Assembly (NCBI RefSeq): GCF_021228795.1
Contig: NZ_CP089309.1
Span: forward strand, 2,356,001 to 2,420,000
Length of the DNA: 64,000 bases
From: Thiocapsa bogorovii
GTDB taxonomy: Bacteria > Pseudomonadota > Gammaproteobacteria > Chromatiales > Chromatiaceae
Direction: 5' to 3'
The notes below the pieces were generated by a model. It saw only the letters and a list, made by a program, of their open reading frames with translations. It was not told where the DNA came from and ran no database searches. Positions 18,623 to 31,795 of the stretch are shown here, piece by piece. The translations under genes and the position numbers were made by a program. Positions within the stretch are counted from its first letter, which is position 1. Each line of letters starts with the position of its first letter.

Positions 18623-19294
18623 TCAGAGCCTCATGATGTCCCGCAGCTCCACGCTGCCGAGCACCTGGCAGTAGATCATGTTGAGGATCTCCAGCTCGCG
18701 CCGGTGAAGCTCGTCGGTACCGGCCGCGCAGGCGTCCTCGACCACGATGACGTTGAAGCTCTCGTCGGCGAGACTGCGTACCGTGGAGGAAACGCACTGA
18801 TCGGTGAAGATCCCGGTCAGCACCACGTTGCGGATGCCCATGTTGGCGAGGATCAGGCGCAGGTTGGTGCCGGTCAGGGCGCTGTCGGTGGTTTTGGTCA
18901 CGACGATCTCACCGGGGAGCGGCGCCAGCTCGGGTATCAGTTGACTGGCCGCGCTGTCCTTGGGCAGCAAGAGCGCGTTCCAGCCCGGCTTCTTCTGGCT
19001 GAGCGAGCGGTCCCGCCCGTCCTCGAGCAGGCAGGCGATGCGGGCATGGATGACGTCCATCCCCTTCGCGCGGAAGGCGTCCTGCAGGGCGCGGGTGGTC
19101 GGGATGACGATCTCGCGCATGCGCCGGTGGAAGGGGAACCAGCGCGCCGCCTCCTGCGGATCGGACGGGATCTCGAGATAGAGGTTCTGCACGTCGATGC
19201 TCAGCAGCGCTGTTTCGGCCGGGTCCAGCACAAGGTCCTCGGGCTCGGGTGCGTGCGCGTAGTAGAAGGAGCGGTAGGCGGTCTTCCAGTTCAT
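18623..19294 (-). CDS. Isochorismatase-family cysteine hydrolase
   Basis: A 223-residue hydrolase of the isochorismatase/nicotinamidase superfamily. The catalytic triad is seen as Asp in ALLSIDVQNLYLE, Lys in VVTKTTDSALTGTNL and Cys in GIFTDQCVSSTVRSLAD. It has no signal peptide. The extended N-terminus (KTAYRSFYYAHAPEPEDLVLDP) is typical of a subgroup of uncharacterised amide hydrolases. Genes on either side are unrelated, so the substrate (a small amide, carbamate or enol ether) cannot be inferred. Confidence 0.9.
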   Translation of the reverse strand: MNWKTAYRSFYYAHAPEPEDLVLDPAETALLSIDVQNLYLEIPSDPQEAARWFPFHRRMREIVIPTTRALQDAFRAKGMDVIHARIACLLEDGRDRSLSQKKPGWNALLLPKDSAASQLIPELAPLPGEIVVTKTTDSALTGTNLRLILANMGIRNVVLTGIFTDQCVSSTVRSLADESFNVIVVEDACAAGTDELHRRELEILNMIYCQVLGSVELRDIMRL

Positions 19295-22241: not shown

Positions 22242-22270
22242 CGACCGGAGGGACGCCTTTCCTCCGGTCG
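22242..22270 (-). terminator. Terminator-like hairpin after the small exported protein
   Basis: A perfect 10-bp stem, CGACCGGAGG with CCTCCGGTCG around a 9-nt loop, starts 11 nt beyond the leftward stop at 22281. No U-tract follows, so termination may need Rho, or the hairpin may protect the mRNA end. Confidence 0.45.
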
Positions 22271-22280
22271 CCGAGCTGTC

Positions 22281-22580
22281 CTACAGGAAACCCCCGTAGA
22301 AGGTGCTTGCGGGGGCGAGGTCGGAATTCATTCGCTCGTTGCTCGGGATCCGGCCCTCGATTGTTCGATCCATGTCCGCAAACCTCGTCGATCCCTCCAC
22401 GATGCTATCCTCAAAGTGCTCCTCCGGCGAGGCCGACCGGCTTTCAGCGATGCGAGCCGTCTCCGTTCCGATCTCGGCCCAGATATAGGAATCCGGTCCG
22501 CCGACGCCGAATCCGCCTTGTCCCGCGAAGGCCGGTGAGATCACGAGTGTCAGGGCGAGGGTACCAAGGATGTTCTTCAT
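22281..22580 (-). CDS. Small exported protein, second gene of the YHS operon
   Basis: Ninety-nine residues with a clear signal peptide (MKNILGTLALTLVISPAFA, cleaved before GQGG). The mature part is acidic, with GGPDSYIWAEIGTETARIAES and a C-terminal APASTFYGGFL, and has no cysteines. GGAG lies nine bases before the ATG. No family is recognised. It follows the YHS-domain gene by 64 bp on the same strand and so should share the sigma-54 promoter at 23261-23276. Location and co-expression suggest a periplasmic role in the same response. Confidence 0.7.
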   Translation of the reverse strand: MKNILGTLALTLVISPAFAGQGGFGVGGPDSYIWAEIGTETARIAESRSASPEEHFEDSIVEGSTRFADMDRTIEGRIPSNERMNSDLAPASTFYGGFL

Positions 22581-22644
22581 GGTCTGTTCTCCAGTCAAGT
22601 GGGATTGTTTCTTGAGTCGAGCACGTGCCTTGGACGTGCGAGGG

Positions 22645-23142
22645 TCAGCGGCTGTTGACCTCGGAGACCGCGACGTGATGCATCCCGGGCCAGTTCTGCT
22701 CCGCCTTGGTCAAGGTCCCGACCTTGTCTTCCTCGTAGGCCGCGAAGGCGGCCGCGTCCAGGAACAGGTAGAGCTTGGAGTCGACGATGTCGGCGTAGCG
22801 CGGATTGGCGTCGAGCTTCTTGCCGACCGCGACGCCAAAGGCGCAGTAGCCGCCGTATTGCGGCTGATAGGCCGCGGGGTCGGCGGCGAAGGCATCACGC
22901 GTGTCTTGGCTGGCGAAGTAGTAGGCGACACCGTCGTGGACGTGGCTGAACTTGGCTTGGCCGTCGGTGACGCCGAGACCAAGCGCGAGGGCCACGCTGT
23001 CGGTGCCGCGCAGCGCAACGCGCTCGCCGGTACGGGTCGTGCCGCTTGAGAGGTTGTACTCATCGACGGCGAGTGCCACGGATGCGGTGGAGAGGCTGCC
23101 GATGACGGTGGCTACGCTGATCAGAGTGTGGATGGGCTTCAT
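22645..23142 (-). CDS. Exported YHS-domain protein
   Basis: A 165-residue protein with a signal peptide (MKPIHTLISVATVIGS ... ALAVDEYNLS) and a YHS-type domain: GVAYYFASQDTRDAFAADPAAYQPQYGGYCAFGVAVGKKLDANP. YHS domains occur in metal transporters and in periplasmic proteins, and may bind metals. Here one cysteine (GYCAFG) and a histidine (FSHVHDG) are candidates. The ATG at 23142 is preceded by GAAAGGTAAC. It is the first gene after a sigma-54 promoter and a palindromic activator site, so it should be switched on by the regulator encoded divergently at 23386. Confidence 0.85.
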   Translation of the reverse strand: MKPIHTLISVATVIGSLSTASVALAVDEYNLSSGTTRTGERVALRGTDSVALALGLGVTDGQAKFSHVHDGVAYYFASQDTRDAFAADPAAYQPQYGGYCAFGVAVGKKLDANPRYADIVDSKLYLFLDAAAFAAYEEDKVGTLTKAEQNWPGMHHVAVSEVNSR

Positions 23143-23260
23143 GACGTTACCTTTCAGTGATCGCCAGAGATTGGCGAGGTTTGTGAGCCCCGCAAGCCGC
23201 ATGGCTCGCGGATCGTGCCGCCGGCGCTCGATGGCTTTTCCGGTCGTGCACTTGCCTTAT

Positions 23261-23276
23261 TACAAGCGCCATGCCA
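23261..23276 (-). promoter_or_regulatory. Sigma-54 (-24/-12) promoter of the YHS operon
   Basis: On the minus strand the sequence TGGCATGGCGCTTGTA matches the RpoN consensus (TGGCAYG, four bases, TTGCW) except T for C near -12. An AT-rich patch (23279-23303) between it and the palindrome at 23328-23350 could be an IHF site. The promoter layout repeats at 29945-29960. Confidence 0.75.
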
Positions 23277-23327
23277 ACCATTAATATTTTTAAAAAACAT
23301 AGAGATAAGATAGAGGCGCCGACTCAA

Positions 23328-23350
23328 GAGATTTGTGGACCACAAATCTC
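23328..23350. promoter_or_regulatory. Palindromic upstream activator site 1
   Basis: A perfect 23-bp palindrome, with 11-bp arms GAGATTTGTGG and CCACAAATCTC around a central A. It lies in the divergent region between the YHS operon and the regulator gene, 64 bp from the -24 GG of the sigma-54 promoter and 36 bp before the regulator ATG. It can serve both activation of the operon and autoregulation. The core GTGGACCACAAA recurs at 30018-30029. Confidence 0.8.
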
Positions 23351-23385
23351 CGTGGTCTAATACGCAGAAATTTGGGGGGACAGCG

Positions 23386-25218
<1,833 letters not shown>

Positions 25219-25323
25219 CCGGCTTCACGTCGGAGGCCCTCTGAGATCCCGACGCCCGAATCGCGCCAGCGGCGCCGGTGTGTCGCCGAGCACCCGAACC
25301 CGCGCGACGCGGCCTGGCCCCGG

Positions 25324-26703
25324 CTATTCCAGGGCGCCGAGGTTACCCAGCAGCGTCGGAATCAGCTCGCTGACCGTGGGATGGATGTGCACGGCACGCT
25401 GGATGACCGTGTAGGGCGTACCGGCTACCATGGCATCGAGGAGCGTGTGGATGACCTCGTCGCCGCCGAGGCCGATGATCGCGGCGCCGAGCATGCGCTG
25501 GGTCTCCGCGTCGATCAGCACCTTCATGAATCCTTGCGTCTCGCCGCGCTCGCGGGCACGTCCGACCCGGGTCATCATGAGCTTCCCCATGAGGACCCGC
25601 CGGCCGGTGTCGCGCGCCTGCTGCTCGCTCAGCCCCGCTCGCCCGAGCGGCGGGTCGATGTAGAGGGCATAGGCCGGTATCCGATCGGAGACGCGCCGTG
25701 GCGCGTCGTCGAGCAGGTTGGCCACGAGGATCTCGTGGTCGTTGTACGCGGTGTGGGTGAAGGCGCCGCGGCCATTGACGTCGCCCAGCGCCCAGACACC
25801 CGGCGCGGTCGTGCGCAGCTGCTCGTCCACCAGGATGAAGCCCCGCCCGTCGGTCTCGATGCCGGCGCTGCTCAGCCCGAGATCATCCGTGTTGGGCTGC
25901 CGGCCGACGGCCAGCAACAGATGGCTGCCCTGGACCTCGGCCGGGCCCTCTTGGCAGTCCAGATGGACGGCAACCCCGGCGTCTTGCGCTCGAACGCTCA
26001 GGCATGCGGCATTCAGCCGGACCGCGACACCCTCGGTTTCCAGGATCTCCTGCACGGTCCGCGACACGTCCGCGTCCTCGTGCCGGATCAGCCGCTCGCC
26101 CTGCTCGATCACCGTCACCCGGCTGCCGAATCGGCGGTACATCTGCACGAATTCGAGCCCAACGTAGCTGCCCCCGACGATGACCAGATGCTCCGGCAAG
26201 ACGTCCAGGTCCAGCAGGCTGGTGCTGGTCAGATACTCCACCTGGTCGAGCCCGGGCAGGTCCGGGACCGAGGGGCGCGCGCCCGTGTTGATGAAGATCC
26301 GCTCGGCGTGCAGGACCTCCCCGTTCACGCGCACCCGATTCGGACCGTCGAATCGGCCATGGCCGTCGTAGGTACGGAGGTTTGGCATGGTCTTCAGCCA
26401 GCCGGTGACGCCATCCTTGGAGGCCTTCACGACGGCGTCTTTCCGGGCCTTGACCCGCGCCATATCGACGTGGACCTCGCCGTTGATCATGACCCCGAAC
26501 TCGGGTGCTCGTCGGGCCACGTAGGCGGCGCGGGCGCTCGCGACCAGTGTCTTGGTCGGCGTGCAGCCGACGTTGACGCAGACACCCCCGAGGTGCTCGC
26601 GCTCGATGAGGGCCGTGCTCAGCCCCGCGGCCGTCAGCCGCTGCGCGAGGGAGGGGCCGGCTTGTCCGGCGCCGATGATGATTGCATCGTAGTGTGTTGT
26701 CAT
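25324..26703 (-). CDS. FAD-dependent pyridine nucleotide-disulfide oxidoreductase (mercuric reductase-like)
   Basis: A 459-residue flavoenzyme. It has an N-terminal FAD loop (AIIIGAGQAGPSLAQRL), a redox-active cysteine pair in GGVCVNVGCTPTKT, an NAD(P)H loop (VIVGGSYVGLEF), the second FAD motif (GVWALGDVNG) and the C-terminal dimer/active-site segment HIHPTVSELIPTLL with the His-Pro-x5-Pro signature. It lacks an N-terminal metal-binding domain and the terminal cysteine pair of true MerA, so mercury reduction is unlikely. It is the last gene of the leftward operon that starts at 29913 and may pass electrons to, or receive them from, the iron-sulfur reductase just upstream. Confidence 0.9.
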   Translation of the reverse strand: MTTHYDAIIIGAGQAGPSLAQRLTAAGLSTALIEREHLGGVCVNVGCTPTKTLVASARAAYVARRAPEFGVMINGEVHVDMARVKARKDAVVKASKDGVTGWLKTMPNLRTYDGHGRFDGPNRVRVNGEVLHAERIFINTGARPSVPDLPGLDQVEYLTSTSLLDLDVLPEHLVIVGGSYVGLEFVQMYRRFGSRVTVIEQGERLIRHEDADVSRTVQEILETEGVAVRLNAACLSVRAQDAGVAVHLDCQEGPAEVQGSHLLLAVGRQPNTDDLGLSSAGIETDGRGFILVDEQLRTTAPGVWALGDVNGRGAFTHTAYNDHEILVANLLDDAPRRVSDRIPAYALYIDPPLGRAGLSEQQARDTGRRVLMGKLMMTRVGRARERGETQGFMKVLIDAETQRMLGAAIIGLGGDEVIHTLLDAMVAGTPYTVIQRAVHIHPTVSELIPTLLGNLGALE

Positions 26704-26771
26704 GGCGGATTGCTCTCTGATTGATGGCGTGTGGGGATTGATGGCGTGTGGGTGAAGGCTAGGGCGGACCC

Positions 26772-28517
26772 TCAGATGGCGAGGATCAGGTCGCTCGCGG
26801 GAACCGAGCAGCAGATGAGCACGGACCCCGGGTCCGGACGCTCGACGGGCTCGATGCGGTAGGTCACCTCCCCGGCGATGCGCGTGCACAGGCAGGTGTG
26901 GCAGATTCCGGAACGGCAGCTGAAATCGGGTCGCAGACCACGGGCCTCGGCCAGCTCCAGGAGGCTCTCGACACCGGGATCCCAGGCGGCGGTGACGGCG
27001 GACCGCTCGAAGACCACCTCAAAGGCAGGCGAGCGGTCATCGTCCGTCACCCGGGTAGGCGCCTGTTCGGCACCCGCCTTCAGGACGGATGCGGGACCAA
27101 AGAACTCATAGTGGATGCGGTCCTCGGCGACGCCCCAATCCAGCAGCCCGTTATAGAGGGACCGCATGAAGGGCGTGGGACCACAGAGGTAGAAGTCATA
27201 CGCCGCGGGCGGAAGCAGCGCCTTGAGTACGTCCACAGAGACATGACCGACGCCAGCGTGGCTCGGCCCTACAGCGTCCCCCGGCTCCGGCCGACTGTAG
27301 CGGACATGGAGATGGACACTGTCGTGCGCGGCGGCGAGACGCCGCAGGTGCTCACCCATGACCTGCTCGCGAGCGTTGCGCGCGCCGTGGATGAACCAGA
27401 CCTGCCGCTTTGATCCTGCGGCAACGATGGCGTTGAGCATGCTGATCATGGGTGTCAATCCGATCCCGGCGCTGATCAGCACCACCGGCGTCTCCTGACC
27501 GGGGTCGAGGCAGAGCTCACCCCGGGGGGACCTGACACGGAGCTTCGTACCGGGCCGGACCTGGTCATGGAACCAACTCGACGAGAGGCCGGGCGGTGCC
27601 TCGGGCCGCTGCGCCGGGGGCAGCTCGCGCTTGACGCTCAGTCGATAGTGCTCGGGGTTGGGGGCGTCGGAAATCGTGTATGTCCGGGTGACCGGTCTTG
27701 GCTGGCCCGGGATGTCCAAGCTGAGGGTGAGGAACTGCCCTGGCTTGAATGCGGGCAAGGCCTCCCCGTCCTCGGGAGTCAGATAGAAGGACGTGACGGT
27801 CTGCGTTTCCGCGACCCTGCGATCCACGACGAACGAGCGCTCGCCATCCCACCCCCGCGGTTCGGGCGCCGACTGGGCCGCGTCCAGCTGCTTCTCCAGG
27901 TGCAGGCGCCAGGCATCCCCCAGGTCGCGGGAGGCAAGCACGCGCCGCAGTCCGTAGGGATCGCGTCTTCCGGACCGGTAGACATGAATGAACTCGGCGA
28001 TGGTGACCGAGCGCGGGTCGCTGTCGACGCGCTCGATGGTGTCGCCCGCGCCGATCTCGCCCTCCTCGATGACGCGCAGGTAGAAGCCGAGCCGGCCGCT
28101 CTCCAGGAACCGACGCAGGAAGTCCGGCCCCGCGGCCATGCGCAGGGCGAGCTTGTAGCAGGGGATGCGGGGCTGCGTGACCTGCAGCAGGGCGCCGCCC
28201 ACGCGGAACCGATCACCGACGCGCACCTGCTCCTCGGTCAGCCCTTGTAGCGTCAGGTTCTCCCCGAACTGACCGAACGGAAAGGGCGCGCGCTGGAGCG
28301 CTGCCTGCCAATAAGGGTAGTGCTCGACCGGATAGGCATACACGGCCATGTCGCGTCCGCCGTGCACCTTCCGGTCCGCCTGGCCATCGCCGTCGAGATT
28401 CAGCGTGCGCGCCCTGACGCGCCCGACGACGGGCTCTTTGAAGATGCCCGTGGTGATGGTGGCGCCCTGGTGGGGCACCTCCTTCGGGAGAGAGACGTTG
28501 ACGGAGAGCAGTTTCAT
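26772..28517 (-). CDS. MOSC domain fused to ferredoxin-NAD reductase with a 2Fe-2S domain
   Basis: A 581-residue fusion. Residues 1-215 are a YiiM-like MOSC domain (HGGRDMAVYAYPVEHYPYW, FGENLTLQGLTEEQVRVGD, QPRIPCYKLALRM with the conserved Cys). Residues 230-470 form an FAD/NAD(P)H reductase (RTYTISDAPN, ISAGIGLTPMISMLNAI, FYLCGPTPFM). The C-terminus is a plant-type 2Fe-2S domain (CRSGICHTCLC and a later Cys in LICCSV). MOSC domains bind molybdenum cofactor or sulfur carriers; YiiM reduces hydroxylated purines. The enzyme could reduce N-hydroxylated or other electrophilic compounds. The order MOSC-FAD-FeS is known as a family architecture. It lies 68 bp before the disulfide-oxidoreductase gene. 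Confidence 0.9.
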   Translation of the reverse strand: MKLLSVNVSLPKEVPHQGATITTGIFKEPVVGRVRARTLNLDGDGQADRKVHGGRDMAVYAYPVEHYPYWQAALQRAPFPFGQFGENLTLQGLTEEQVRVGDRFRVGGALLQVTQPRIPCYKLALRMAAGPDFLRRFLESGRLGFYLRVIEEGEIGAGDTIERVDSDPRSVTIAEFIHVYRSGRRDPYGLRRVLASRDLGDAWRLHLEKQLDAAQSAPEPRGWDGERSFVVDRRVAETQTVTSFYLTPEDGEALPAFKPGQFLTLSLDIPGQPRPVTRTYTISDAPNPEHYRLSVKRELPPAQRPEAPPGLSSSWFHDQVRPGTKLRVRSPRGELCLDPGQETPVVLISAGIGLTPMISMLNAIVAAGSKRQVWFIHGARNAREQVMGEHLRRLAAAHDSVHLHVRYSRPEPGDAVGPSHAGVGHVSVDVLKALLPPAAYDFYLCGPTPFMRSLYNGLLDWGVAEDRIHYEFFGPASVLKAGAEQAPTRVTDDDRSPAFEVVFERSAVTAAWDPGVESLLELAEARGLRPDFSCRSGICHTCLCTRIAGEVTYRIEPVERPDPGSVLICCSVPASDLILAI

Positions 28518-28602
28518 GGTTTCAGTCCAGGTTGGTTGGCCTTGGCTCGGCGGGGCTGCCGTCATCGCCGGCACAGGCAGGGCTCGCCGTTGCCGGCCGG
28601 GA

Positions 28603-29079
28603 TCACAAGGCCAGCTCGGACAGGCCCTGGTGTCCCTCGGGCCGCGGTCCCGGCGGCCAATGGAAGAGGCGCTGCTCGGGGCGAATCGGCAGGTCATTGA
28701 TGCTTGCCAAGCGCACGCGCATGAGTCCCTTTTCGTCGAATTCCCAGTTCTCGTTGCCGTAGGAGCGGAACCAGTTGCCCGCGTCGTCGTGCCACTCGTA
28801 GGCGAAGCGAACGGCAATACGGTTGTCGGTGAAGGCCCAGACCTCCTTGATCAGCCGATAGTCGAGCTCCCTGGCCCACTTGCGGGTGAGGAACTGGACG
28901 ATCTGCGCGCGTCCGTTGACGAACTCCGCACGGTTGCGCCACCGGCTGTCCGACGTGTAAGCGAGCGAGACCCGCTGGGGGTCGCGGCTGTTCCAGGCGT
29001 CCTCGGCGAGGCGGGCCTTCTCCGCGGCGGTCTCGGCGGTGAAGGGGGGAAGCGGTGGTCTGGTGTCGGTGGTGCTCAT
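28603..29079 (-). CDS. DUF1348 / NTF2-like protein
   Basis: A 158-residue cytosolic protein of the DUF1348 branch of the NTF2/SnoaL superfamily: [34 protein letters not shown], then [44 protein letters not shown] and [18 protein letters not shown] near the C-terminus. The cone-shaped fold forms a hydrophobic pocket and is used for small-molecule isomerases, dehydratases or binding. No activity is known for DUF1348. It lies inside the sigma-54 operon. Confidence 0.88.
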
Positions 29080-29169
29080 GGGGGTTCTCTTTCTGTATCG
29101 GTGGCTCGAGTGTTGGTGTCCCCGACGCGCCAGGGTGGGATCGCGCCGGGGACAGGCGTGGGGCGGCGC

Positions 29170-29577
29170 TCAGTCGGCGCGCATGGCCGCGACCGCTTCC
29201 TCGGTGCTCCACACCGTATTGGCCAGGAAGCGGAAGTTCACGAGCGCGGCGGCGTAGCCGTCCCCTTCCTCGACCTGAGCGGCCGCCGTCGCATCCGCCA
29301 CCACCGCGACCTCGAACCCCTGCTCGAGCAGCTCGCGCAGGTGGGACTCGGTGCAGAGATTGGCGGACATCCCGGCCAGCACGACCTTGTCGATGCCCTG
29401 TTTGCGCAGCTGCAGCACCAGGTCGTTGGTCTCGGGGCCGTAGATCTTGTGCGGGCTGGTGACGGTGGTTTTGCCGTCCTCGATCTCCATGCCGGGATTC
29501 GGCAGATCCGCGAAGGCGGGCGAGAGGGTTAGCGTCAGGGATGCGGCGACACACAGGGTCTTGGCGACGGTCTTCAT
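29170..29577 (-). CDS. Exported isochorismatase-like protein with internal deletion
   Basis: A 135-residue protein. The signal peptide (MKTVAKTLCVAASLTLTLSPAFA) is joined, after only about eight residues, to the C-terminal half of an isochorismatase-family hydrolase: IEDGKTTVTSPHKIYGPETND, the nucleophile loop AGMSANLCTESHLRELLEQGF and EGDGYAAALVNFRFLANTVW. Full-length relatives are about 230-250 residues; the first half with the catalytic Asp is absent. The open frame and ribosome site are intact, so the shortened protein may be made, but as a hydrolase it should be inactive. It is the second gene of the sigma-54 operon. Confidence 0.7.
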   Translation of the reverse strand: MKTVAKTLCVAASLTLTLSPAFADLPNPGMEIEDGKTTVTSPHKIYGPETNDLVLQLRKQGIDKVVLAGMSANLCTESHLRELLEQGFEVAVVADATAAAQVEEGDGYAAALVNFRFLANTVWSTEEAVAAMRAD

Positions 29578-29679
29578 GGTCTTGCTCCGGATCGTTGGAT
29601 GGATGAGCGGTGCTCTGGGCAGCCCGCAGGTCTTCGAGCGCCGGCTCGATCGCCCTGGCTTTCGCCGCGACGGGTCGCG

Positions 29680-29913
29680 CTACAGGGACGGAGAGGCCCT
29701 GCCGGCGCGTCCCCAGTCGCACTTGTGCTCCACGCGTTGCAACAGATGCGCTTCCAGGCGCGTGCAGAGGGGCAGCCAGAGCCAGAGGCACAGGGCCAGC
29801 GCGCACAACAGGTCGGCGATGTGAAGACCGTCCATCACCATCCCGCCCAAGCTCAGGGCGAAGATCAGTCCACGGTTCAGGTTGATGAGGTGACTGCGTC
29901 GTTTGGCGTTCAT
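29680..29913 (-). CDS. Small membrane protein, first gene of the sigma-54 operon
   Basis: Seventy-seven residues with a basic N-terminus (MNAKRRSHLINLNRG), two closely spaced hydrophobic helices (LIFALSLGGMVMDGLHIADLL and the following Leu/Trp-rich CLWLWLPL) and a short polar tail. It has a strong ribosome site (AGGAGAGG before the ATG). No family is recognised. As the first gene after the -24/-12 promoter at 29945-29960 it should be the most strongly induced product of the operon. Confidence 0.65.
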   Translation of the reverse strand: MNAKRRSHLINLNRGLIFALSLGGMVMDGLHIADLLCALALCLWLWLPLCTRLEAHLLQRVEHKCDWGRAGRASPSL

Positions 29914-29944
29914 ATCGGCCTCTCCTGTCGCACGCTTGCTCTAA

Positions 29945-29960
29945 AACAAATGCCGAGCCA
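29945..29960 (-). promoter_or_regulatory. Sigma-54 (-24/-12) promoter of the redox operon
   Basis: On the minus strand TGGCTCGGCATTTGTT matches the RpoN consensus at the key GG and TTG positions. The -24 GG lies 63 bp from the centre of the operator-like palindrome at 30015-30029, against 64 bp at the other promoter. An AT-rich spacer containing ATGTTTTTGAA lies between, closely resembling the one upstream of the YHS operon. Confidence 0.75.
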
Positions 29961-30014
29961 ACAGATAATAATGTTCAAAAACATATGCTTATAGAGCGTC
30001 GCGTGCCACAGGAA

Positions 30015-30029
30015 TTCGTGGACCACAAA
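30015..30029. promoter_or_regulatory. Palindromic upstream activator site 2
   Basis: TTCGTGGACCACAAA shares the 12-bp core GTGGACCACAAA with the perfect palindrome at 23328-23350. A further inverted pair CACAA/TTGTG follows directly. It is placed upstream of the second sigma-54 promoter at matching distance, so it is most likely bound by the same activator. Confidence 0.75.
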
Positions 30030-30330
30030 AACTTGTGATTCGAGACTCAGGAAATCGAGGTGGCTGGATGACAGGTGGATCTGTCGGCGGGTGCACGGCC
30101 GCTCGCGTGCGGCTCCGCTAGCCGGGCGCAGGCGATCGGAGGCGGTATGGCGATCGCAACTGAGCTTAGGCGATCGTTCGATTGGACGAGCAGCTCAGCC
30201 GCTCGGTCGCGCAGAGGCCAGGTCGCCTTGCTCAATGCAGGCAATAATCCAGACCATCACGACGCTGGAAATGACTGGCGTTGGGGGCATTGAGGGCACT
30301 GGACTTCGGGCGCTGCGTTGAGGGGTCTGC
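30030..30330. other. Intergenic region, 300 bp
   Basis: Between the second activator site and the stop of the DUF1772 gene I see no gene and no clear terminator. Confidence 0.4.
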
Positions 30331-30825
30331 TCAAAGCCTGAGCATCAGGAGTATCAGCAACACCGAGGTCAGGCTCGCCACGACCGTCCTGATCGCATTC
30401 CATCGATTCCAGCGCGGCTCGAATGCCCGGCGCGCCGATGCTTGCGCCGGCTCCTCCAGGCCATCGAGAGCGAGCGCTTGGAGCTGGTTGTTCAGCGGAA
30501 CGTTCACGATGAACGTCGGGAGTTGGACACCGAGAAGATAGAGGGTCGCAGCGACGACGAGGAGCAGGCGATCGGCTCCATCCAAGGACCACAAGCCAAG
30601 AACGGCCGCGACGGCCAAGGTCGCCACCGAGCCGGCCCAGACGAGCACGAAGATCGGTTGCCCCCGCTGGATCACACCATCCATCACCTGAAACGCTCGG
30701 ATGAACTCCCGGTCGCTCAAGCGCTTGAGGCCCGGCATCACCACGACAGCGAACGCCAACAAGAAGCCCGCGACCAACGAGCAGAGAAACGTCGCCAAAA
30801 GCAGGATGAGCTGCAAAAGTCCCAT
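30331..30825 (-). CDS. DUF1772-type integral membrane protein
   Basis: A 164-residue protein with four hydrophobic helices: LILLLATFLCSLVAGFLLAFAVVVMPGL, then FVLVWAGSVATLAVAAVLGL, then LLLVVAATLYLLGVQLPTFI and the C-terminal TVVASLTSVLLILLML. The VVMPGLKRLSDREFIRAFQVMDGVIQ loop and NVPLNNQLQAL are hallmarks of the DUF1772/anthrone-oxygenase-like family. The function in bacteria is unknown. Relatives often accompany small-molecule modifying enzymes, fitting the VOC, NTF2-like and hydrolase genes upstream on the same strand. Confidence 0.85.
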   Translation of the reverse strand: MGLLQLILLLATFLCSLVAGFLLAFAVVVMPGLKRLSDREFIRAFQVMDGVIQRGQPIFVLVWAGSVATLAVAAVLGLWSLDGADRLLLVVAATLYLLGVQLPTFIVNVPLNNQLQALALDGLEEPAQASARRAFEPRWNRWNAIRTVVASLTSVLLILLMLRL

Positions 30826-30947
30826 GGTGTCTCCAGTTGGTCGAGCGCCGGGGCGCCTGTCAGGAAGGGGCCGGAGCGCGCTGCACGTCGCCCTGTCGTC
30901 CGCAACACCAGGCTGCCCACGCGGGTCATTCCGGCGTCTTGCTCGGC

Positions 30948-31370
30948 TTAGCCCCGGGCGGTGCCCTTGAGCTCGACCGTATTGCCCTCGGGATCGCGGA
31001 TGTAGAGCGAGGGTCCGCTCCCCAGGGCACCGTAGCGCGTCACGATCTCACCCACCTCCACGCCCTGCCCGCGCAGGTGCGCGATAATGGCGTCCGGATC
31101 CCAAGGCTGCACCTGCAGACAGACGTGATCCATGTTGGGCGCGCCGTGCTCGGGAGGCTCACCGCCCGCTCGGCCCAAGTCGCTCTTGACATCGACGAGA
31201 TCGATCAAGGATCGCCCGGCGCGTAGCTGGGCGAGCCCGATCTCGCCTGGCCCGCGCTCCAGCCGGCAGCCCAGAACGTCGCTGTAAAACATGATCATGC
31301 GCTCCAGGTCGACGGCGCGAAGCACGACGTGGTCGATCAGAGCGATATTGATGGGGCTCGGCTGACGCAT
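30948..31370 (-). CDS. VOC-family (glyoxalase/bleomycin-resistance fold) protein
   Basis: A 140-residue metal-dependent VOC fold. The N-terminal module is INIALIDHVVLRAVDLERMIMFYSDVLGCRLERG with a metal-binding His. The second module has NMDHVCLQVQPWDPDAIIAHL and SLYIRDPEGNTVELKG with the conserved His and Glu. GGAGG precedes the ATG at 31370. Such proteins act as glyoxalases, dioxygenases, epimerases or antibiotic-binding proteins; which applies here is not determined. It is 122 bp upstream of the DUF1772 gene on the same strand. Confidence 0.9.
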   Translation of the reverse strand: MRQPSPINIALIDHVVLRAVDLERMIMFYSDVLGCRLERGPGEIGLAQLRAGRSLIDLVDVKSDLGRAGGEPPEHGAPNMDHVCLQVQPWDPDAIIAHLRGQGVEVGEIVTRYGALGSGPSLYIRDPEGNTVELKGTARG

Positions 31371-31795
31371 GGTGGCTCCTCCAGGTCGCTTGCGCGCATC
31401 TGAAGTCAGAGTGGCGCCCGTTGCGCGCGTTCCAATAGGCGGATGTGCGGCAGCAATCGCAAATCTCCTCAAAGTCCGCTAAGCGCGATTTTGCCGCCAC
31501 ACCCTGAATCGTTGGAAATGTCCATTTTTGGCCGAGTCCTTCTACCTCGGACCTTTCGGATCGACTGACCGCTGCTGGGGCCATGCGACCTCAGAGCAGT
31601 CAACCTTCCCAAGGGGATCTCGCCTGCGGCGGCCAGGTCCTGATTCAGCAGTCCGATATCGGTCAACAGCCGCACCGCCATGAGGCGATCGACGCTCGAT
31701 TGAAACTCCAGCAGCAAATGGACGTAGACCGAGTGCTGGATCTCAAAACCCCGCATTTCGACTTGATCCGCGCTGCCTTCGCCAAAGTCCCGGCG
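31371..31795. other. Gap with a possible gene remnant
   Basis: A leftward frame at about 31580-31756 (VYVHLLLEFQSSVDRLMAVRLL, then TDIGLLNQDLAAAGEIPLGRL) has the composition of real protein but no start, no match I recognise and no ribosome site. I treat it as the tail of a decayed gene. CGACTGACCGCTGCTGGG near 31563 resembles sequence at 37745 and 46190. Confidence 0.35.

What the first reader, a model, noticed from the sequence alone, without database searches (positions are those of the whole stretch)
22242..30029. A self-contained sigma-54 regulon with two outward operons under one activator
Seen: two -24/-12 promoters (23261-23276 and 29945-29960, both on the minus strand). Each has the same activator-site core GTGGACCACAAA at nearly the same distance (64 and 63 bp from palindrome centre to the -24 GG), and each has a similar AT-rich spacer with ATGTTTTT. 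Between them lies a PAS/AAA+/Fis activator with an intact GAFTGA. Downstream of the promoters are an exported YHS protein plus a small exported protein, and a five-gene operon (small membrane protein, exported isochorismatase-like, DUF1348, MOSC-reductase-2Fe-2S, disulfide oxidoreductase). The matching layout argues for one co-regulated response. No known system with this gene set comes to mind.
Basis: partly seen in the sequence, partly recalled or inferred. Interest (0 to 1): 0.82.

Follow-up and report, generated by a model that had tools for sequence, protein, structure and literature searches.

The report
Sigma-54 regulon with tandem-dyad operator
A purple bacterium carries a self-contained gene switch, in which one activator with a matching DNA address in front of two gene sets probably turns on a group of export and redox enzymes; related switches occur in other bacteria, but what they respond to is unknown.

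Summary
Both minus-strand -24/-12 promoters (23261-23276, 29945-29960), the shared 12-mer and the 64/63 bp spacing are real. One correction: the operons are not both outward, because the five-gene operon runs toward the activator gene. Of 1506 -24/-12-like sites in 88 sequences, 18 reach 16 of 20 matches (next best 13), 17 of them 62-64 bp from the -24 GG. All 18 lie in the window or in loci with a matching activator N-terminus, and CCACA ranks first of 1024 pentamers. On an activator tree the operator marks one supported clade (11 of 11 against 0 of 17). Six of 20 loci with sister activators carry ACG-N6-CGT pairs at the same 17-bp period, 84-86 bp from GG. G229 holds the whole locus. The window's isochorismatase has an in-frame 110-residue deletion and is probably dead. 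The most likely role, redox or electrophile stress, is inferred. I found no published description in the library searched.

The parts
23386..25218 (+). sigma-54 activator (two N-terminal PAS-like domains, sigma-54 AAA+ with GAFTGA, Fis-type HTH), 610 aa
   Evidence: AlphaFold2 model of residues 1-283 reads as two PAS-like folds and a linking helix; 89% identical protein in L051
23340..23355 (-). left operator dyad of the YHS promoter (CCAC-N8-GTGG)
23323..23338 (-). right operator dyad of the YHS promoter, only its CCACA half kept
23261..23276 (-). -24/-12 element of the YHS operon (TGGCATGGCGCTTGTA)
   Evidence: identical in L051
22645..23142 (-). exported YHS-domain protein (NF041384 family)
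   Evidence: 109 bits, cut-off 70; 92% in L051; signal peptide read from the sequence
22281..22583 (-). small exported protein, no family match
   Evidence: 55% in L051; signal peptide read from the sequence
30023..30038 (-). left operator dyad of the five-gene operon (TCACA-N6-TGTGG)
30006..30021 (-). right operator dyad of the five-gene operon (CCACG-N6-TGTGG)
29976..29984 (-). conserved ATGTTTTT spacer element (also 23292-23300 at the YHS promoter); IHF-like or bending element, inferred
   Evidence: TGTTTT lies 23-24 bp from the -24 GG in 13 of 18 sites by the script, and in a 14th (L093) on reading its printed sequence
29945..29960 (-). -24/-12 element of the five-gene operon (TGGCTCGGCATTTGTT)
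29680..29913 (-). small membrane protein (77 aa), no family match; membrane nature read from the sequence
   Evidence: 88% in L051, 62% in L061 and 60% in L111
29170..29577 (-). exported isochorismatase-fold protein with an in-frame 330-bp deletion (135 instead of 245 aa)
   Evidence: ATCGA microhomology at the junction
28603..29079 (-). DUF1348 (SnoaL/NTF2-like) protein
   Evidence: 226 bits; PDB 2imj
26772..28517 (-). MOSC domain fused to an FAD/NAD reductase and a 2Fe-2S ferredoxin domain
   Evidence: MOSC part like YiiM 5yhh, reductase part like flavohaemoglobin
25324..26703 (-). pyridine-nucleotide disulfide oxidoreductase (NF004992/PRK06370) with a CVNVGC pair read from the sequence
   Evidence: 759 bits, cut-off 629; nearest PDB sequence 6kgy

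Best explanation
This is a local sigma-54 regulon. The PAS activator binds a 33-bp element of four half-sites, best read as two adjacent 16-bp dyads (CCACA-N6-TGTGG, 17-bp period), centred 62-64 bp upstream of the -24 GG. Bending of the AT-rich spacer (TGTTTT element) would bring it onto RNA polymerase-sigma-54 at the YHS promoter and at the five-gene promoter. The operator in front of the YHS operon also lies 31-63 bp upstream of the activator's own start codon, so autoregulation is likely (inferred). Shown here by comparison: the element, its spacing, and its co-occurrence with the activator clade. Inferred: binding, sigma-54 dependence, the parsing into dyads, and the signal. The most likely role is a redox, oxidant or electrophile stress response: the second PAS domain has H173, H177, H178, C191 and H203, invariant in the 13 sensors aligned, which could hold a metal, haem or redox centre, and the targets are exported proteins, a YHS protein, a MOSC-reductase and a RclA/MerA-like flavoprotein, with glutaredoxin, DoxX and an FMN-binding-type protein in relatives. 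I give that functional step about 0.35.
For:: 17 aligned sites in the window and 12 loci, all with centre-to-GG 62-64 and the same layout; 18 of 1506 -24/-12-like sites score 16/20 or more (next 13), all in the window or in loci with an activator N-terminus match over 100 bits; CCACA first of 1024 pentamers (18 sites; mean over pentamers 0.08). The 17 sites are among the 18; the 18th (L084, 9096, minus, 58 bp) is the same dyads read from the other strand; operator is one side of a branch with 99% SH-aLRT, 11 of 11 against 0 of 17; the best score anywhere in the 17 loci without it is 14. ACG-N6-CGT pairs with the same 17-bp period at 84-86 bp from a TGGC in 6 of 20 loci with sister activators (L053, L075, L079, L085, L110, L118); whole locus in G229; activator within 6.5 kb of the isochorismatase in 32 of 87 loci; DUF1348 in 19 of 32 with and 10 of 55 without; one sigma-54 gene in the genome; conserved His/Cys in a PAS fold whose Foldseek hits include DosP, FixL, NifL-NifA and MmoS.
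Against: No expression or binding data. The window's -12 boxes read TTGT, not TTGC. The 17 sites were first picked with dyads as a criterion, though the score gap and the narrow spacing were not selected for. Thiocystis violacea (L060) keeps the operon and operator (17/20) while its genome gave only PAS-level activator matches of 42-45%. Wider pattern scans show no regulon beyond the locus: over 14 genome handles the junction pattern gave 32 matches against 56 for the reversed control. The conservation of junction and dyads is about equal, so the parsing rests on the one-turn spacing of half-sites (recalled for Fis-type activators) and on the outer halves. The functional step rests on gene families only. 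The window's isochorismatase is probably dead, so the response may be partly decayed here.
Confidence: 0.82

Rival explanations
1. The core operator is the GTGGACCAC palindrome noted by the first reader, bound by one central dimer, and the flanking CCACA and TGTGG halves are secondary.
For: The exact junction is kept in 6 of 17 sites, as often as the right dyad (6) and more than the left one (5); mean scores are 8.9, 8.5 and 9.0 of 10. The two window places are the best genome matches to the 15-bp form.
Against: The outer halves are conserved too (means 4.6 and 3.9 of 5; positions 3, 4 and 33 identical in 17 of 17). Junction mismatches occur in 11 of 17 sites. Half-sites one turn apart fit Fis-type dimers (recalled).
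Confidence: 0.25
2. The regulon is a catabolic or detoxification pathway for one particular organic compound (for example a halogenated, quinone-type or amide compound) sensed by the PAS domains, not a general redox stress response.
For: Operon partners in relatives include an exported alpha/beta hydrolase nearest haloalkane dehalogenases in sequence, DoxX and SDR-type proteins (SDR read from the sequence); L051 has a lactonase-like beta-propeller behind a third site. Exported enzymes suggest an external substrate.
Against: The partner enzymes change between lineages while activator, operator and isochorismatase stay; the window set is rich in redox flavoproteins.
Confidence: 0.35
3. The locus in this strain is a decaying, recently transferred island whose promoters no longer matter.
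For: The isochorismatase has lost 110 residues including the N-terminal Asp motif; 10 same-genus genomes gave only PAS-level matches to the activator's N-terminus; -12 boxes are TTGT; the right YHS dyad is half lost; G229 holds an IS21-like insertion next to a second, broken activator copy.
Against: The other seven genes have open frames matching G229 along their length, at 83-97% except the small exported protein (55%); the half dyad is shared with L051, and TTGT with L051 and L060.
Confidence: 0.15

Closest known systems
NtrC-family bacterial enhancer-binding proteins with PAS or GAF sensors (NorR, NifA)
   Same: AAA+ domain with GAFTGA, Fis-type HTH, repeated upstream sites, -24/-12 promoters; AAA+ scores best against the NorR (374.9 bits) and NifA (372.7 bits) models
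   Different: Both scores lie below the curated cut-offs (476 and 528.85); sensor is PAS-PAS, operator half-site CCACA, targets unrelated to NO or nitrogen fixation
Isochorismatase-like cysteine hydrolases (PF00857; YecD, biuret hydrolase, RutB)
   Same: Fold and the conserved Cys region
   Different: Exported; the full-length L051 protein is below the cut-off of each of the three NCBIfam models listed; the window copy lacks the N-terminal half of the domain
RclA / mercuric reductase-like flavoproteins
   Same: PRK06370.1-4 equivalog cut-off met; nearest PDB sequence 6kgy; that 6kgy is E. coli RclA is recalled
   Different: RclA score 359 against cut-off 740, MerA 338.7 against 454.45; sigma-54 control instead of RclR (recalled)
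DUF1348 protein 71cR of Cercospora nicotianae
   Same: DUF1348 domain; upregulated in response to cercosporin, and its expression studied as resistance to that photoactivated toxin (PMC4608573, start of abstract and passages seen)
   Different: Fungal protein, mechanism unknown; disruption mutants did not differ from wild type in resistance (same passages)

Membership tests
sigma-54 enhancer-binding protein | Sigma54_activat AAA+ domain with GAFTGA | tested here: met
   PF00158 242.4 bits; GAFTGA in the translation
sigma-54 enhancer-binding protein | Fis-type HTH and N-terminal sensor | tested here: met
   PF02954 25.2 bits over cut-off 22, PAS_4 55 bits over 23.1; PAS-like folds
sigma-54 enhancer-binding protein | rpoN in the same genome | tested here: met
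   one PF04552 match, 231.6 bits
sigma-54 dependent promoter | GG at -24 and GC at -12 with 10 bp between | tested here: inconclusive
   GG and spacing met in both; -12 reads GT in both window sites, two of three L051 sites and L060, GC in 11 of the 12 sites of the other loci
sigma-54 dependent promoter | transcription lost without rpoN | not testable with these tools
   needs a mutant
NorR | NCBIfam NorR cut-off | tested here: not met
   374.9 against 476
NifA | NCBIfam NifA cut-off | tested here: not met
   372.7 against 528.85
isochorismatase-like cysteine hydrolase (active) | complete domain with Asp, Lys and Cys (triad recalled) | tested here: not met
   window copy covers profile 100-174 of 175 and lacks the TDPQ Asp region present in the eight relatives aligned; Cys kept
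RclA | NCBIfam RclA cut-off | tested here: not met
   359 against 740
YHS (seleno)protein NF041384 | subfamily cut-off | tested here: met
   109.2 against 70; the Pfam YHS model alone is below its cut-off (22 against 30.3)

The most novel reading that the evidence does not exclude
A widespread, undescribed sigma-54 stress module: a His/Cys-rich PAS activator on two tandem dyads with a fixed 17-bp period, set at one of two helically related distances (62-64 or 84-86 bp from -24), controlling an exported isochorismatase-fold enzyme plus lineage-specific redox partners and sensing oxidants through a metal, haem or redox centre in its second PAS domain. The activator lies by the isochorismatase in records of about nine phyla; the tandem dyads were seen in four named ones (Pseudomonadota, Acidobacteriota, Planctomycetota and, without a listed -24 box, a Desulfosarcina).
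Probability: 0.35. Interest if true: 0.72.

Novelty: new member of a known kind. Interest (0 to 1): 0.55.

Why it matters
It turns a one-genome impression into a defined regulator-operator pair with a conserved address, spacing and core target, so it can be tested with one reporter and one deletion. It also attaches four poorly understood families (exported isochorismatase, DUF1348, exported YHS, MOSC-reductase fusion) to one signal, at least in the window's lineage. The change of half-site from ACG to CCACA, together with a shift of about two helical turns, would be a compact case of activator-operator co-evolution.

Tried and rejected
Composite pattern search over 274 genomes of the class used eight unspecified bases where seven were needed between TGGC and TTG; it misses even the window's own sites, so its zero is void. 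It was followed. One search (junction pattern, 14 handles, two of which, G200 and G315, hold the same places) gave 32 matches against 56 for the reversed control, so it shows no wider regulon. One search (left-dyad pattern, 15 handles) gave 8 matches in 6 genomes against 2 control matches; 6 of the 8 are sites of this kind (G308, G317, G200, G310 once, G229 twice). It does not match the window's own sites, whose dyads deviate.

Nearest PAS-domain hits in 56 genomes gave no ortholog in the genus; one search used only the first 265 residues. The ten neighbourhoods fetched hold no TGTGGNCCACA.

A first scan for ACG dyads limited to 56-70 bp from GG missed most sister operators; the promoter-independent scan found them. 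There ACG is not the top trimer by count in the 20 loci (CGC 12, GCG 11, ACG 11, in GC-rich DNA), so the support is the shared position. Of the 11 ACG hits 6 lie 84-86 bp from a TGGC, one (L103) 64 bp from one, and four (L082, L102, L106, L117) had none listed. In 55 loci without a counted activator ACG gave 7 hits, one of them (L065) at 84 bp, L054 and L086 near weak TGGC boxes, the rest with none.

'Self-contained' holds for the window genome at the stringency used, but G229 has further sites before a lactonase-like gene and a second YHS copy, and L084 a second site.

Cluster counts (31 of 87 loci) include PAS histidine kinases joined by single linkage (seen); the count used is that (32 of 87), which includes two doubtful cases (L103, L109) and a fragment (L082). 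Association of YHS, small membrane protein, MOSC-reductase and PRK06370 with the activator was not significant. L114 was dropped as the same contig as L056. The tree (quick method) holds 25 of the 32 loci plus the window, L183 and the distant PAS hit L031; L088, L102, L113, L116 and L124 were not in the cluster used, L082 and L109 were dropped by me, as were five kinase rows. The label of L183 (G172) rests on one 15/20 site, below the 16/20 line.

Papers: passages of PMC4608573, PMC13207237, PMC12316311 and PMC9312934 were read; others were seen only as listings (one search listed 15 of 37). PMC13207237 lists a Bradyrhizobium isochorismatase gene with TGGCACGGCGCTTGC at -37 among genes it calls downregulated; whether it is a homolog was not tested.
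Full report
What is there. The window lies in a 5.65-Mb single-contig genome that has photosynthetic reaction-centre genes and one sigma-54 gene. Between 22.28 and 30.04 kb lie an activator gene on the plus strand (23386-25218) and seven genes on the minus strand: exported YHS protein and a small exported protein downstream of one -24/-12 promoter, and small membrane protein, exported isochorismatase-fold protein, DUF1348, MOSC-reductase-ferredoxin and a disulfide-oxidoreductase-type flavoprotein downstream of the other. Both promoters read on the minus strand, so the five-gene operon runs toward the activator and only the YHS operon runs away from it.

Is it more than chance. The 12-base core has three matches at up to one mismatch in the window, against 0.09 expected, and the 15-base form has only these two places in the genome at up to one mismatch. 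The -24/-12 boxes alone are not above chance. A composite of core, gap and -24/-12 finds four places in the genome, two of them these promoters, with two control hits.

Orthologous loci. G229, in another family of the class, holds the same eight genes in the same arrangement. Proteins are 83-98% identical, except the small exported protein (55%) and the first 42 residues of the isochorismatase (77%). A scan of genome contigs with an alignment of nine isochorismatases gave the best 80 of 582 relatives. Adding eight earlier loci and removing one duplicate contig leaves 87 loci, of which 32 have a sigma-54 activator within 6.5 kb. DUF1348 is near the isochorismatase in 19 of these 32 and in 10 of the 55 others. 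By record titles the 32 include Pseudomonadota, Acidobacteriota, Zixiibacteriota, Planctomycetota, KSB1, Gemmatimonadota, Nitrospinota, Nitrospirae and Desulfosarcina.

The operator. Aligning 17 promoters from the window and 12 loci shows four half-sites, CCACA-N6-TGTGG twice, 17 bp apart, centred 62-64 bp from the -24 GG. TGTTTT lies 23-24 bp from GG in 13 of 18 sites (these 17 and L060) by the script, and in a 14th when its printed sequence is read. Exact GTGG-N-CCAC junctions number 6 of 17, exact left dyads 5 and exact right dyads 6; half-site means are 4.6, 4.4, 4.5 and 3.9 of 5. So the outer halves belong to the site, but conservation alone does not say how dimers pair on it. As a null, all 1506 -24/-12-like sites of 88 sequences (the 87 loci and 24 kb of the window) were scored without regard to genes. 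Eighteen reach 16 of 20 and the next reaches 13; all 18 are in the window or in loci with an activator N-terminus match. One of the 18 (L084, minus strand, 58 bp) is an operator already counted, read from the other strand. CCACA is first of all 1024 pentamers, with one-letter variants next.

Co-evolution. On a quick tree of 28 proteins the operator is one side of a branch with 99% SH-aLRT support, 11 of 11 against 0 of 17; in the 17 loci without it the best score anywhere is 14 of 20. One of the 11, L183, has a weaker 15/20 site. In loci with sister activators, ACG-N6-CGT pairs with the same 17-bp period lie 84-86 bp from a TGGC in six of 20 (L053, L075, L079, L085, L110, L118). L103 has such a pair 64 bp from a TGGC, L082 a perfect pair without a listed -24 box, and L065, with no activator on its contig, a pair at 84. 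The raw count of ACG pairs is not above GC-rich decoys; the shared position is the evidence.

Results against the reading. Both window promoters carry TTGT at -12. Thiocystis violacea (L060) keeps operon and operator, yet its genome gave only PAS-level activator matches of 42-45%. In G172 the activator lies on another contig than the isochorismatase. Pattern scans of 14 handles did not exceed the reversed control. The window's isochorismatase has lost 330 bp in frame at an ATCGA microhomology, removing the N-terminal half of the domain with the TDPQ aspartate, so it is probably inactive. Ten same-genus genomes gave only PAS-level matches to the activator's N-terminus, so the island is probably acquired.

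Mechanism. Established knowledge of enhancer-binding proteins (recalled) predicts that dimers on adjacent sites seed a hexamer that remodels sigma-54 polymerase through GAFTGA. One operator lies just upstream of the activator's own start, so autoregulation is plausible. The sensor part is modelled as two PAS-like folds (mean pLDDT 82.6, pTM 0.50). The first Foldseek rows include DosP, FixL, NifL-NifA and MmoS but also eukaryotic PAS proteins, with low TM-scores (0.29-0.46 for the query in the 50 rows shown). H173, H177, H178, C191 and H203 are invariant in the 13 aligned sensors, suggesting a metal, haem or redox site; this is inference.

Function. Target families in the window and relatives point to redox or electrophile handling with an exported hydrolytic arm. 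A fungal DUF1348 protein has been studied for tolerance of a photoactivated toxin (PMC4608573, passages). A substrate-specific detoxification pathway is about as likely. Paper searches showed no description of this regulon; the library lacks most subscription journals.

Verdict. Observation confirmed; co-regulation interpretation supported and refined. [quoted passage not shown]

Noticed in passing
L182 (G229:C217), contig positions about 18.8-21.5 kb: Genes resembling IS21-type istA and istB (named from the sequence, not from a database call) lie beside a second, broken copy of the activator and a second YHS copy with the same operator: a duplication of part of the locus.
   Followed up: partly
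window 18623-19294: A second isochorismatase-fold protein without an evident signal peptide; relatives at 75-78% identity lie near the exported isochorismatase in two Thiodiazotropha loci (L069, L105).
   Followed up: no
window 30331-31472: Anthrone-oxygenase-like (ChrI-like) and glyoxalase-fold genes upstream of the operon also lie close to the locus in L060 and, on the other side, in G229.
   Followed up: partly
L056, L071, L116: The activator carries two consecutive copies of the His/Cys PAS domain (two matches in a row), as if that domain had been duplicated.
   Followed up: no
isochorismatase loci such as L123: Twenty of 87 loci have a gene of one other cluster nearby, which I take from the sequence to be an AraC-type regulator: the same enzyme may have swapped regulators.
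   Followed up: no
L084 15178 and L051 15185: Additional tandem-dyad sigma-54 promoters before a small membrane protein with a lipase-like gene (both named from the sequence), and before an exported lactonase-like beta-propeller.
   Followed up: partly
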